Origin: an uncultured Bacilli bacterium
GTDB lineage: Bacteria; Bacillota_I; Bacilli_A; RF39; UBA660
Assembly: GCA_944329205.1 (NCBI GenBank)
Contig: CALVHY010000067.1
Span: 1-38,520, forward strand
DNA length: 38,520 nucleotides
Direction of reading: 5' to 3'
Shown here piece after piece: positions 6,717 to 10,743 of the stretch. Below the pieces are notes generated by a model that saw only the letters and a program-made list of their open reading frames with translations, ran no database searches and was not told the origin of the DNA. Within the stretch, counting starts at the first letter, position 1, and each line of letters begins with the position of its first letter. Made by a program: the position numbers and the translations under genes.

Positions 6717-6989
6717 TTATTCATCAGCATCTTCAATACTTGCAAGTAAGTTTTCAATTAAATTCCATTCTTCGCTACTTTCAATGTCTTTTAACTCTAA
6801 AGTATGGCCATCTTTGTTATAAGTGGCGGCATAGGTAATAATACTGCCAGTTTCATCTTTAGTATTATCGGTAAAAACGATGTAACTTTTCTTTGTTTCA
6901 TCAGAATCAAAAGTAAATAGAATTTCGTACTCGATTGTTTTGCCACTTTTATCAGTTACTGTAAAGTAACGATTATTTTCTTCATTCAT
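6717..6989 (-). CDS. yrzB: DUF1292 protein (YrzB-like)
   Basis: A 90-residue acidic protein of the DUF1292 family, function unknown. Visible family features are the FTVTDKSGKTIEYEILFTF opening, the SYIVFTDN segment, ITYAATYNK and the C-terminal WNLIENLLASIED helix. It overlaps the end of ruvX by 8 bp and precedes mltG by 9 bp, the invariant arrangement of this small gene in Bacilli. No transmembrane segment or catalytic motif is visible. Confidence 0.88.
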   Translation of the reverse strand: MNEENNRYFTVTDKSGKTIEYEILFTFDSDETKKSYIVFTDNTKDETGSIITYAATYNKDGHTLELKDIESSEEWNLIENLLASIEDADE

Positions 6990-7407
6990 TTTTTTCCTCC
7001 ATTTTAATAAAAGTTTCTAAGATTAAGACAGCCGCCACCCCATCAATTACACTTTTGCGCCTTTTTCTACTAATATTTGCCTCTAGTAATATATTTTCGG
7101 CCATTACTGTAGTTAACCTTTCATCGACTAAAATAATAGGAATATCAGTAATATTTTCTAACATTTCTTTAAATTTTAAACTTCTTGCGCTTGCAAATCC
7201 TTCTGTACCATCCATGTTTTTCGGAAACCCTAATGCTATTTTAGCAATAGTATATTCAGCTAAAATGCTTTGTAGCTTATTTAAAGCAAGATTATAATCT
7301 TCTTTGGGAAAACGGATTACAGTTAAGGGCCTTGCAATTAAACCGGTAGTATCCGTAATTGCTACACCTAAAGTTTTTGTTCCTAAATCCAAACCTAAAT
7401 AGCGCAT
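6982..7407 (-). CDS. ruvX: Putative pre-16S rRNA nuclease / RuvX (YqgF family)
   Basis: A YqgF-type RNase H-fold protein of about 141 residues. The first strand MRYLGLDLGTKTLGVAITD carries the conserved aspartate; the later VDERLTTVMAE and DGVAAVLILETF blocks hold the remaining acidic residues. The family matures the 5' end of 16S rRNA. The frame opens at GTG 7425, but the ATG at 7407 is preferred: it lies seven bases after AGG of AGGTGAT and starts exactly at the family N-terminus. It is the first gene of the operon that runs to greA, driven by the promoter at 7433-7461. Confidence 0.93.
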   Translation of the reverse strand: MRYLGLDLGTKTLGVAITDTTGLIARPLTVIRFPKEDYNLALNKLQSILAEYTIAKIALGFPKNMDGTEGFASARSLKFKEMLENITDIPIILVDERLTTVMAENILLEANISRKRRKSVIDGVAAVLILETFIKMEEKNE

Positions 7408-7432
7408 TTCATCACCTACAAGCACACGTTAT

Positions 7433-7470: not shown

Positions 7471-7704
7471 TCAATTTCCAGTTTGACAAGAACCACGCCA
7501 TACTACAACAGTATCACCATTTTCATCTACATCATAAGCATAACAAAGACTGGCATCTTCATTACATACAGCTTCCCTACAGTATTCACTATTATAATTC
7601 TCCATATTATTATTTGGTCTAAATAAAATAAGCAATATAATTTCTAATACTACTAAAACAATCATGACAATAAAAAATAATTGAAGACTAATTTCTTTTT
7701 TCAT
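7471..7704 (-). CDS. Small membrane protein with extracytoplasmic cysteines
   Basis: A 77-residue protein that I do not recognise. Residues about 7-28 form one strongly hydrophobic segment after a short MKKEISLQ N-terminus. The remaining roughly 48 residues are polar and hold four cysteines (two in YCREAVC, one in SLCYAYD, one in GSCQ), which could form two disulfides outside the cell. The start ATG is one base after the stop of the 38-codon gene, with GGTGGTGG as ribosome-binding site, so the two are co-translated. Both lie downstream of the structured repeat RNA at 7857-8019. Function is unknown. Confidence 0.6.
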   Translation of the reverse strand: MKKEISLQLFFIVMIVLVVLEIILLILFRPNNNMENYNSEYCREAVCNEDASLCYAYDVDENGDTVVVWRGSCQTGN

Positions 7705-7705
7705 T

Positions 7706-7822
7706 TTACCACCACCAAATCCTAAAAATCATAAATACAAATAGTAAAAGGCAGGTGCCAAAAAATATAGCTTCATATAATTTAATTGTTTTATTATTTT
7801 TTTTAACTTCTTTTTTCTTCAT
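7706..7822 (-). CDS. 38-residue basic single-pass membrane peptide
   Basis: A tiny gene: ATG at 7822 follows AAGAGG by about nine bases and the frame ends TAA at 7706. The peptide has a very basic start (MKKKEVKKNNKTIK), a hydrophobic segment of about 18 residues (AIFFGTCLLLFVFMIF) and ends RIWWW. One base separates its stop from the next start. The size, charge pattern and tryptophan-rich end resemble small membrane-active peptides, including toxins of RNA-controlled systems, but also ordinary small membrane proteins; I cannot assign it. Confidence 0.5.
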   Translation of the reverse strand: MKKKEVKKNNKTIKLYEAIFFGTCLLLFVFMIFRIWWW

Positions 7823-7856
7823 AGCTCTAACCTCTTAGAATATTGTAACATAAACC

Positions 7857-7893
7857 AAAAGAAAACTCTATTCTTTTTTAGAATAAAGTTTTC
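7857..7893 (-). terminator. Terminator between the repeat RNA and the small membrane genes
   Basis: A 14-bp stem with one G-U or mismatch position (arms 7861-7874 and 7880-7893, loop of five bases) followed on the minus strand by TTTTCTTTT. The T run is short, so partial read-through into the two small genes is plausible; they have no other visible promoter. Confidence 0.7.
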
Positions 7894-7907
7894 AAACATT
7901 TTCCTTC

Positions 7908-7948
7908 GGAATCATTTATAACTCGCACCATCCGTAAGCGACTAACAT
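7908..7948 (-). repeat. 41-bp direct repeat, copy nearer the terminator
   Basis: 37 of 41 positions match the other copy (7958-7998). The plus strand begins GGAATCATTTATAAC and ends CTAACAT. Two of the four differences are the two halves of one predicted base pair (TCGC/GCGA here). Confidence 0.9.
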
Positions 7949-7957
7949 TTCACGATT

Positions 7958-7998
7958 GGAATCATTTATAACCCGCGCCATCCATAAGCGGCTAACAT
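7958..7998 (-). repeat. 41-bp direct repeat, copy nearer the promoter
   Basis: Second unit, 9 bp from the first; the predicted stem reads CCGC/GCGG on the plus strand, the compensated version of the other copy. Only two units exist and there is no CRISPR-like array. Confidence 0.9.
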
Positions 7999-8025
7999 GT
8001 ACTACATTTCTTTGAATGCAATATA

Positions 8026-8054
8026 AATATACTATATTTTTATGTAAATGTCAA
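8026..8054 (-). promoter_or_regulatory. Strong sigma-A promoter of the repeat RNA
   Basis: Minus-strand consensus TTGACA (8049-8054), a 17-bp spacer and TATATT (8026-8031). It is one of the best -35 matches in the window, although the only products downstream are the repeat RNA and two tiny genes. Confidence 0.75.
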
Positions 8055-8115: not shown

Positions 8116-10743
8116 TTATTTGCTAGATTTAATGGTTGCTTGTGCAGCAGCAAGTCTAGCAATTGGAACACGATATGGACTACAAGATACATAATCAAGT
8201 CCTACACTCTCACAGAATTCAATACTAGCAGGATCCCCACCATGTTCACCACATACACCTAAATGAATATCGCCTCTAGTCTTCCTTCCCTTTTCTACAG
8301 CTATTTTAATTAACTCACCAACGCCTTCGGTATCTAATTTGGCAAATGGATCGGATTCAAAAATCTGTTTTGCGTAATAATCATTTAAAAATTTACCAGC
8401 ATCATCTCTTGAGAAGCCATAAGTCATTTGGGTTAAGTCATTGGTTCCAAATGAGAAAAATTCTGCATATTCGGCTATTTTATCCGCAGTTAAAGCAGCT
8501 CTAGGTATCTCAATCATGGTGCCAACATGATAAGTAATATCACTACCGGCCTCTTTAATTAATTTATCTGCTTCTTCAACAACAATATCACGCACGAATT
8601 TAAGTTCTTTCTCATCACCAACTAACGGAATCATAATTTCCGGAGTTACTTTAATACCAACTTTTTCTACATTAATTGCTGCTTCAATAACAGCTCTTGT
8701 TTGCATTTTGGCAATTTCTGGATAAGTAACAGCAAGACGACAACCTCGGTGTCCCATCATAGGATTAAATTCCTTTAAAGATTCAACGCGTTTTTTTAAT
8801 GCTTCAAAACTCATGCCTAAGCTTTCAGCTAACGGTTTAATTTCTTCATCGGTAGATGGTAAAAATTCGTGTAAAGGTGGATCTAAGAAACGAATAGTAA
8901 CACTGTATGGAGCCATAGCTTTAAATAATTCTTCAAAATCTCCTCTTTGATAAGGAAGAATATCTGCTAAAGCTGCCTCTCTTTGTTCAAGCGTTTCCGC
9001 TGTAATCATTTTCCGAAAATTAAAGATTCTATCTTCTTCAAAGAACATATGCTCTGTACGACAAAGGCCGATACCCTCTGCCCCAAATTTACGTGCTTGA
9101 ATAGCATCTCTTGGGGTATCAGCATTGGTACGAACACGCATTCTTCTTGCCTCATCAGCCCAAGTCATAAATGTTTCAAAGTCGCCACTAATACTTGGTT
9201 CTTCTGTCTTAATTAAGCCATCATAAACACGACCAGTAGAACCATCTAAACTAATTTCATCACCTTCATGATAAACTTTACCACTCTTAGTAGTAAGAGT
9301 TTTAGCTTCTTCATCAATAGAAAGTTCCCCACAACCAGATACACAGCATCTACCCATACCACGAGCAACAACCGCAGCATGGCTAGTCATTCCACCCCGA
9401 ATCGTTAAAATTCCTTCTGCATGATTCATTCCTTCGATATCCTCAGGTGAAGTTTCCAAACGAACTAAAATTGTTTTTTCGCCCATTTTAGAGTGTTCAG
9501 TTACATCCTCAGCCGTAAAATAAATCTTACCAGCACCAGCTCCTGGAGATGCAGCAAGACCAGTAGCGATCACTTCACCTTTTTTTAGCGCAGCAGCATT
9601 AAATGTGGGATGAAGTAAACTATCAAGTTGGTTTGGCTCTACTTTTAAGAGTGCTTCTTCCTTGGTAATTAATCCTTCACTTACCATATCAACAGCAACT
9701 TTTAAGGCAGCAGTAGCTGTTCTTTTACCGTTTCTAGTTTGCAGCATAAATAAATGTCCATCTTCAATTGTAAATTCCATATCTTGCATATCTTTATAAT
9801 GATTTTCAAGCGTTTTCGCAATTTTAGCAAACTCTTTATATACCTCTGGCATTGTACTTTCTAGTTTACTAATAGGTTCTGGTGTACGAATACCTGCAAC
9901 AACATCTTCACCTTGCGCATTAATTAAATATTCACCATAAAGTTTAGCCGCACCTGTCGCTGGATTTCTTGTAAAGGCAACACCAGTACCGGAAGTATTA
10001 CCACGATTTCCATAAACCATTTCTTGAACATTTACAGCGGTACCCCAACTAGATGGAATATCATTCATTCTTCTATAATAAATAGCACGCTCATTATTCC
10101 AACTTCTAAATACGGCCGTTACGGCTTCAATTAATTGAACTTTAGGGTCTTGGGGAAAATCTTCACCAGCAATTTTTTTATAAATCTTCTTAAATTCATC
10201 TGTTACTTCAACCATATCATCTGCGGTTAAATCCGTATCAAATTTAGCGCCTTTTTCTTCCTTTATTTCATCTAAGCGTCTCTCAAAACTTGATTTTGGA
10301 TAACCTTTAACAACATCTGCAAACATTTGAATAAATCTACGATAAGAATCATACACAAATCTCTTGTTATTTGTTACTTCAGTAAAACCTTCTGCTACTT
10401 CATCATTCATACCTAAGTTAAGAACCGTATCCATCATACCAGGCATACTAGCACGAGCTCCACTTCTTACACTAACAAGTAATGGATTTTTCTTATCCCC
10501 AAGTGTTTTACCTGTAATACTTTCTAATTCATCTAAATTAGCATAAATTTCCTTTTTAATTTCTTCATCAATTACTTCTTTATCTTCATAATACTTATTA
10601 CAAGCCTCAGTTGTAACTGTAAATCCTCTTGGAACAGGAAGTCCTAAACCTGTCATTTCGGCTAAATTAGCACCTTTACCACCTAATAATTCTTTCATGT
10701 CCTTGTTACCTTCAGAAAAAAGATAAACATATTTTGTTTTCAT
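8116..10743 (-). CDS. ppdK: Pyruvate, phosphate dikinase
   Basis: An 875-residue enzyme, full length for the family, that interconverts pyruvate, ATP and Pi with PEP, AMP and PPi in the cytoplasm. The N-terminal nucleotide-binding domain begins KYVYLFSEGN...LLGGKGANLAEM. The swivelling phosphohistidine domain carries GGMTSHAAVVARGMG, whose His is the phosphorylated residue. The C-terminal PEP/pyruvate barrel contains GIGLCRTEHMF, MMGHRGCRL and the catalytic cysteine in LGVCGEHGGDP. The gene has its own promoter and an AGGAGG site. In organisms using PPi-linked glycolysis it can replace or assist pyruvate kinase; ackA nearby suggests acetate-forming fermentation. Confidence 0.98.
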   Translation of the reverse strand: MKTKYVYLFSEGNKDMKELLGGKGANLAEMTGLGLPVPRGFTVTTEACNKYYEDKEVIDEEIKKEIYANLDELESITGKTLGDKKNPLLVSVRSGARASMPGMMDTVLNLGMNDEVAEGFTEVTNNKRFVYDSYRRFIQMFADVVKGYPKSSFERRLDEIKEEKGAKFDTDLTADDMVEVTDEFKKIYKKIAGEDFPQDPKVQLIEAVTAVFRSWNNERAIYYRRMNDIPSSWGTAVNVQEMVYGNRGNTSGTGVAFTRNPATGAAKLYGEYLINAQGEDVVAGIRTPEPISKLESTMPEVYKEFAKIAKTLENHYKDMQDMEFTIEDGHLFMLQTRNGKRTATAALKVAVDMVSEGLITKEEALLKVEPNQLDSLLHPTFNAAALKKGEVIATGLAASPGAGAGKIYFTAEDVTEHSKMGEKTILVRLETSPEDIEGMNHAEGILTIRGGMTSHAAVVARGMGRCCVSGCGELSIDEEAKTLTTKSGKVYHEGDEISLDGSTGRVYDGLIKTEEPSISGDFETFMTWADEARRMRVRTNADTPRDAIQARKFGAEGIGLCRTEHMFFEEDRIFNFRKMITAETLEQREAALADILPYQRGDFEELFKAMAPYSVTIRFLDPPLHEFLPSTDEEIKPLAESLGMSFEALKKRVESLKEFNPMMGHRGCRLAVTYPEIAKMQTRAVIEAAINVEKVGIKVTPEIMIPLVGDEKELKFVRDIVVEEADKLIKEAGSDITYHVGTMIEIPRAALTADKIAEYAEFFSFGTNDLTQMTYGFSRDDAGKFLNDYYAKQIFESDPFAKLDTEGVGELIKIAVEKGRKTRGDIHLGVCGEHGGDPASIEFCESVGLDYVSCSPYRVPIARLAAAQATIKSSK

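What the first reader, a model, noticed from the sequence alone, without database searches (positions are those of the whole stretch)
7857..8019. Tandem structured repeat RNA between a strong promoter and a terminator
A consensus TTGACA-17-TATATT promoter drives about 160 nt without an ORF, made of two 41-nt repeats (period 50) and an intrinsic terminator. The repeats differ at four positions, two of which are the paired halves of one stem position (U-A in one copy, C-G in the other), a small but real covariation signal. A GGAU loop can pair with AUUCC at the 3' end of each unit, giving two tandem H-type pseudoknots. Promoter, short RNA repeats, leaky terminator and downstream gene is the plan of type III toxin-antitoxin loci (ToxIN, CptIN, TenpIN) and also of tandem-aptamer riboswitches; I recognise no known consensus.
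Basis: partly seen in the sequence, partly recalled or inferred. Interest (0 to 1): 0.72.

Follow-up and report, generated by a model that had tools for sequence, protein, structure and literature searches.

The report
Toxin-less CptI RNA antitoxin array
A gut bacterium carries the RNA antidote half of a known type III toxin-antitoxin system (CptIN) with its poison gene deleted, and related bacteria and several phages also carry the antidote without the poison, so it may act as a ready-made antidote or may be a leftover of a lost system.

Summary
On the minus strand, 8054-7861 holds a TTGACA-17-TATATT promoter, two 50-nt units and a terminator. The units are CptI-type H-pseudoknots. Across 80 distinct units from the genus, both stems covary (116 double-changed cells against 40 ± 4.5 in shuffles), and the A-rich loop matches the published description of CptI from E. 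rectale. In at least 10 related species the same kind of array precedes a CptN toxin (NCBIfam CptIN, 151-162 bits, cut-off 90; PDB 4rmo, E 2e-17). In the window the toxin is absent, and no CptN is found in the rest of the 93%-complete genome. The junction reads as a precise excision between two TTTATG-bearing promoter elements. This is a solitary CptI array, not a complete CptIN locus and not a riboswitch.

Solitary arrays recur in the genus: at least 14 loci, including three sites where other species keep the toxin. Their pseudoknots are nearly all intact (2 broken core pairs of 208), though a few promoters and terminators are decaying. Whether they are young relics (the toxin must be lost first) or selected antidotes is unresolved.

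Phage genomes, including the complete Geobacillus virus E3, carry unannotated CptI-like tandems without CptN, some among tRNA genes: candidate RNA antidotes to CptIN.

The parts
8026..8054 (-). sigma-70-type promoter TTGACA-17-TATATT of the array
   Evidence: 11/12 matches; conserved in 18/18 toxin-linked arrays at 10-11 of 12
7949..7998 (-). CptI unit 1 (S1 CCGC/GCGG, S2 UGGA/UCCA, L2 UUAUAAAUG)
7899..7948 (-). CptI unit 2 (S1 UCGC/GCGA, S2 CGGA/UCCG, L2 UUAUAAAUG)
   Evidence: the 50-nt unit is identical to that in toxin-linked relatives G034 and G007
7861..7893 (-). intrinsic terminator, 14-pair stem followed by TTTT
7840..7862 (-). approximate excision junction: CTTTTGGTTTATG (as before CptN in G032) fused to TTTATGTTACAAT (as before the 38-aa ORF in relatives)
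7709..7822 (-). 38-aa membrane-type ORF resident at this site; not the toxin (present also where no array exists)
8116..10743 (-). ppdK (pyruvate phosphate dikinase), upstream boundary of the conserved site
   Evidence: gene name from knowledge of the family
6982..7425 (-). ruvX/yqgF-like gene, downstream boundary of the conserved site
   Evidence: gene name from knowledge of the family

Best explanation
It is a solitary CptI array: the RNA antitoxin half of a type III CptIN locus whose CptN endoribonuclease gene has been excised. Shown here: homology of the array to CptI arrays that precede CptN in relatives; the covarying H-type pseudoknot; an intact promoter, two intact units and a terminator; no CptN in the assembled genome; a junction that reads as a precise fusion of the pre-toxin and post-toxin sequences. 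Inferred: it is still transcribed as a ~160-nt RNA that stops at the terminator, and each unit could still bind and neutralise a cognate CptN if one entered the cell, which would also cut the precursor into single pseudoknots. The likeliest reason it exists is order of loss: the antitoxin cannot go before the toxin, so toxin-first loss leaves a still-functional antidote that can protect against re-invading CptIN until it decays.
For: Array + CptN in relatives at the same ppdK-ruvX site. Toxin family: NF047359 CptIN equivalog, 151-162 bits against a cut-off of 90; CptN 4rmo E 1.9e-17. Pseudoknot: 89.3% of cells paired, 9 of 10 pairs with double changes, 116 double-changed cells against 40.3±4.5, 0/500 shuffles. 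L2 UUAUAAAUG agrees with A29, U30 kink, A31, A33 and G35 of CptI_Er as described in PMC4627078. No CptN in G000; no further units in G000. Excision junction. Solitary arrays also at the dnaB-like and rpsL sites where G019/G031/G035 keep CptN. Same architecture in CptN-linked loci outside the genus.
Against: The genome is a 93%-complete MAG, so a CptN on a missing contig cannot be excluded. No expression data. The relic reading and the selected-antidote reading share most of their evidence. Some other solitary arrays do show decay (G020 lost its -35 box; weak terminators in 3 of 14).
Confidence: 0.8

Rival explanations
1. The solitary array is kept by selection as an anti-addiction or immunity RNA that neutralises CptN brought in by plasmids, phages or recombination, rather than being a relic on its way out.
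For: 26 solitary units have 2 broken core pairs against 28.6±4.3 expected if their differences from the nearest linked unit were neutral (0 of 2000 simulations). Same-site solitary arrays of two species diverge at 0.12-0.21 of the 4-fold rate, like linked ones. 11 of 14 keep promoter matches of 10/12 or better. CptN cassettes do move between species (4-fold 0.19 against 0.50 for core genes). Phages carry toxin-less CptI-like arrays.
Against: Most of those differences may predate toxin loss; the losses look independent and could be recent; the window array is only 2% from a linked array, so its toxin loss may be young. Known CptI are strictly cognate-specific (PMC4627078), which limits a general protective role. 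G007 acquired a CptIN next to an older array, which then decayed.
Confidence: 0.35
2. The array still serves a CptN encoded elsewhere in this genome (split locus), missed because the assembly is incomplete.
For: The genome is 93% complete in 72 contigs; other species carry several CptIN loci.
Against: No CptN hit in G000 with a protein or the family profile. G016, 71% complete, shows the same toxin-less arrangement; G005, G014 and G027 also have arrays but no CptN.
Confidence: 0.06
3. A tandem riboswitch or attenuator controlling the small membrane ORF downstream.
For: Two structured domains followed by a terminator and a gene.
Against: No Rfam match; downstream genes differ completely between sites (rpsL, dnaB-like gene, AddB-like gene, CptN); the 38-aa ORF is present without the array (L098, L099) and has its own promoter-like element.
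Confidence: 0.02
4. A complete toxin-antitoxin locus whose toxin is the 38-aa hydrophobic peptide.
For: A small hydrophobic, lysine-rich peptide lies directly downstream, as in type I systems.
Against: The peptide gene sits at the ppdK-ruvX site with no array or CptN in G029, G006 and others and also behind intact CptIN loci (G034, G009, G026).
Confidence: 0.02

Closest known systems
CptIN type III toxin-antitoxin system (E. rectale CptI/CptN, PDB 4RMO; PMC4627078)
   Same: Tandem ~45-50-nt H-type pseudoknot units with a long A-rich L2 carrying the A29-U30-A31 pattern; promoter before, terminator after; relatives encode CptN downstream.
   Different: No CptN in this locus or found in this assembled genome; the array stands alone.
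Phage PhiTE pseudo-ToxI (PMC3475682)
   Same: Type III antitoxin-like repeats without their toxin.
   Different: PhiTE mimics ToxI, is phage-borne and experimentally shown; this is chromosomal, CptI-type and untested. The CptI-like phage arrays found here (Geobacillus virus E3 and uViGs) are the nearer analogue of PhiTE.
Orphan type II antitoxins / anti-addiction modules
   Same: Antitoxin kept without toxin.
   Different: There the antitoxin is a protein; here it is a structured RNA array.
RNA anti-CRISPRs (solitary repeat units in phages, PMC10651486)
   Same: Solitary copies of a defence system's RNA element in phage genomes, comparable with the phage CptI-like arrays.
   Different: Different system; parallel of logic only.

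Membership tests
CptIN type III toxin-antitoxin locus | tandem structured repeats forming an H-type pseudoknot | tested here: met
   (covariation of both stems, 0/500 shuffles)
CptIN type III toxin-antitoxin locus | promoter upstream and intrinsic terminator after the array | tested here: met
CptIN type III toxin-antitoxin locus | CptN toxin gene directly downstream | tested here: not met
   absent in window and no hit in G000; present in relatives at the same site
CptIN type III toxin-antitoxin locus | RNA is cut into units by CptN and neutralises it | not testable with these tools
   needs a kill/rescue assay and pull-down
CptI antitoxin RNA (as a homologous element, without its toxin) | sequence and structure homology to arrays that precede CptN | tested here: met
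   unit 2 identical to toxin-linked arrays of G034 and G007
CptI antitoxin RNA (as a homologous element, without its toxin) | A-rich L2 with A29, U30 kink, A31, A33, G35 | tested here: met
   L2 UUAUAAAUG in both units, compared with the text of PMC4627078; the CptI_Er letters themselves were not available
ToxIN / TenpIN | toxin of the ToxN or TenpN family beside the array | tested here: not met
   linked toxins score as NF047359 CptIN and no other toxin family
known Rfam riboswitch or sRNA family | match above gathering score | tested here: not met

The most novel reading that the evidence does not exclude
Toxin-less CptI arrays are a selected class of RNA antidote. Gut Bacilli keep them after losing CptN as protection against re-invading CptIN cassettes, and phages (Geobacillus virus E3, tRNA-array phages) carry them to disarm host CptIN, which would make CptIN an anti-phage system, a role not yet shown for it.
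Probability: 0.3. Interest if true: 0.8.

Novelty: new variant of a known kind. Interest (0 to 1): 0.55.

Why it matters
CptIN is a type III family for which no anti-phage role has been observed (two systems tested, PMC5086642). A genus in which the RNA antidote repeatedly outlives its toxin, and phages that carry the antidote alone, give natural material to test what CptIN does. They also show how RNA antitoxins evolve once freed from their toxin. The arrays match no Rfam family and are unannotated in the phage record examined, so they are likely to be missed by standard pipelines.

Tried and rejected
Rfam at gathering and at E up to 10: only low-complexity chance hits. Plain folding of the whole transcript: not significant, because the structure is pseudoknotted. 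Nested short ORFs (MLAAYGWRGL*, MLVAYGWCEL*): not conserved, stop codons in frame in relatives. Riboswitch: downstream genes unrelated. 38-aa ORF as toxin: present without arrays. Array in annotated phages or plasmids by blastn: none for the window array. Weak pattern hits in viral contigs that lack stem 2 (L316, L318-L320, L323, L326, L305, L327) were rejected; L321 is doubtful. Strong selection claimed for the window copy alone: rejected as unproven, since CptIN cassettes move between species and the loss may be recent. Model R2 and its seed A3 contain the two window units besides units from intact or decayed toxin-linked loci, so R2 is not fully independent of the window, though it is independent of the toxin-less phage loci. 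The original classification paper (10.1093/nar/gks231) was not held.

Full report
**The element.** Everything lies on the minus strand between ppdK (8116-10743) and a run of small genes ending in a ruvX-like gene (6982-7425). A TTGACA-17-TATATT promoter (8054-8026) is followed by two units of exactly 50 nt (7998-7949, 7948-7899) and a 14-pair terminator (7893-7861). No Rfam family matches. Plain folding is unremarkable (z -1.3), as expected for a pseudoknot.

**What it is homologous to.** The 204-bp stretch gave long alignments in most of the 35 other same-genus genomes, and only short low-scoring matches outside the genus. In many of them the terminator is followed by a 155-160 aa gene starting MKVKTGYIYHIKDEFFD.... 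This gene is CptN: NCBIfam NF047359 'CptIN family toxin', four proteins at 151-162 bits with a cut-off of 90, and E. rectale CptN 4rmo at E 1.9e-17. CptN loci outside the genus also have the same kind of array upstream.

**Structure.** Eighty distinct units from the genus were aligned. With stem 1 (cols 7-11/26-30) and stem 2 (cols 14-18/43-47) as an H-type pseudoknot, 89.3% of cells pair, 9 of 10 pairs have changes on both sides, and 116 cells are doubly changed against 40.3±4.5 in shuffles (0 of 500); sliding the 3' partners destroys the signal. The loop UUAUAAAUG matches the CptI_Er loop A27-G35 at A29, the U30 'kink', A31, A33 and G35, the loop that paper found essential for antitoxicity (PMC4627078). 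The comparison uses the paper's text; the CptI_Er letters were not available.

**The toxin is gone.** G000 (1.07 Mb, 93% complete) has no CptN by protein or profile search and no further CptI units. At the ppdK-ruvX site the genus shows every state: array+CptN (e.g. G034, G007, G032, G026, G028, G009, G015, G025), broken toxin (G030, G008, G013, G001), solitary array (G000, G016, G020 with one unit, G024), a relic with remnants of both (G023), and empty (G029, G006). The window's junction CTTTTGGTTTATGTTACAATATT joins the sequence found before CptN in G032 (CTTTTGGTTTATGGTATAAT) to the one found before the 38-aa ORF (AATTTATGTTACAATATT), sharing TTTATG. That is what a precise excision of CptN would leave. 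G016 shows a similar toxin-less arrangement in an independent assembly, which argues against misassembly.

**Solitary arrays recur.** Loci with at least 500 nt of CptN-free downstream sequence include G000, G016, G020, G024, G004:C10, G005, G011:C19, G014:C68, G015:C1, G017:C34, G025:C96/C23/C74, G027:C102 and G031:C13. At the dnaB-like site CptIN is kept in G019 (broken), G031 and G035 while G015 and G025 have only the array; at the rpsL site G019 keeps CptIN while G017 and G025 have only the array, of the same distinctive ACUAGA/UCUAGU subtype. G005, G014, G016, G027 and G000 have arrays but no detected CptN. Several of these genomes are 71-93% complete, so some toxins may be missing from the assemblies.

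**Relic or kept?** Units in solitary arrays are almost all intact: 2 broken core pairs in 26 units against 28.6±4.3 if their differences from the nearest linked unit were neutral. Same-site solitary arrays diverge at 0.12-0.21 of the 4-fold-site rate, within the range of toxin-linked ones (0.02-0.21). But promoters have slipped in 3 of 14 and terminators in 3 of 14, against 0 of 18 linked ones. CptIN cassettes move between species (CptN 4-fold divergence 0.19 where core genes show 0.50), and the window units are 2% from G007's linked array. So the window's loss may be young, and much of the conservation may predate it. An order-of-loss explanation (toxin first, antitoxin later) is sufficient; selection as an anti-addiction RNA is possible but not shown. 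In G007 a newer CptIN stands in front of a degenerate older unit, so a solitary array did not stop re-acquisition there.

**Phages.** Pattern scans of viral contigs gave toxin-linked arrays (L217, L221/L224, L223, L313, L314, L325), one with a broken toxin (L220), and toxin-less tandems: L222 and L218/L219 near tRNA clusters (and a drum RNA in L218/L219), L306 (three units), and weaker single units L317, L324, L322. None of the searched records of the toxin-less loci holds CptN (in which nothing rang); in a second run the same search rings in three toxin-linked records and not in Geobacillus virus E3 (complete, 141,298 bp), which has two CptI-like units between its PhoH-like and PolI-like genes (record ~7478-7583), stem 2 UCCAC/GUGGA and ACCCGU/ACGGGU. 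The viral loci were preselected by a pattern on stem 1 and the loop, so their model E-values overstate the case; the independent support is stem-2 complementarity and tandem arrangement. By analogy with PhiTE pseudo-ToxI (PMC3475682) these are candidate RNA antidotes to CptIN; this is inference.

**Verdict.** Observation confirmed; interpretation partly right. It is a solitary CptI antitoxin array: homologous to the RNA half of a known system and failing the toxin criterion for a CptIN locus. The recurrence of toxin-less CptI in bacteria and phages is the new and testable part.

Noticed in passing
L328:2430-2550 (Geobacillus virus E3, KP144388 ~7478-7583): Unannotated intergenic tandem of two CptI-like pseudoknots in a complete phage genome that has no CptN.
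   Followed up: partly
L222:2700-2800 (-), L218:1686-1781 (-), L219:1822-1915 (-): Toxin-less CptI-like tandems in phage contigs rich in tRNA genes (14 tRNAs in L222; drum RNA RF02958 near those of L218/L219).
   Followed up: partly
L306:804-935 (+): Three CptI-like units in a row in a 71-kb viral contig without CptN.
   Followed up: partly
L045:2020-2750 (reverse-complement orientation; G007): Array - CptN - degenerate single unit fused from two units plus a second terminator: a newer CptIN in front of an older decaying array.
   Followed up: partly
L009, L010, L011 just downstream of the array terminator: An extended -10 element (TGGTATAAT) lies between terminator and CptN start, so the toxin may have its own promoter besides read-through.
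   Followed up: no
L057 (G023), L014 (G030), L016 (G008), L077 (G013), L078 (G018): CptN is broken in several ways (internal deletions, frameshifts, stops): the toxin is lost often in this genus.
   Followed up: partly
G000:C8:3529-3798 and G000:C40:1216-1485: Two different dnaB-like genes (87% and 83% identical to the query) in the window's own assembly; perhaps a paralogue or mixed strains in the MAG.
   Followed up: no
window 7471-7704 (-) and 7709-7822 (-): Two small conserved genes of unknown function between ppdK and ruvX throughout the genus.
   Followed up: no
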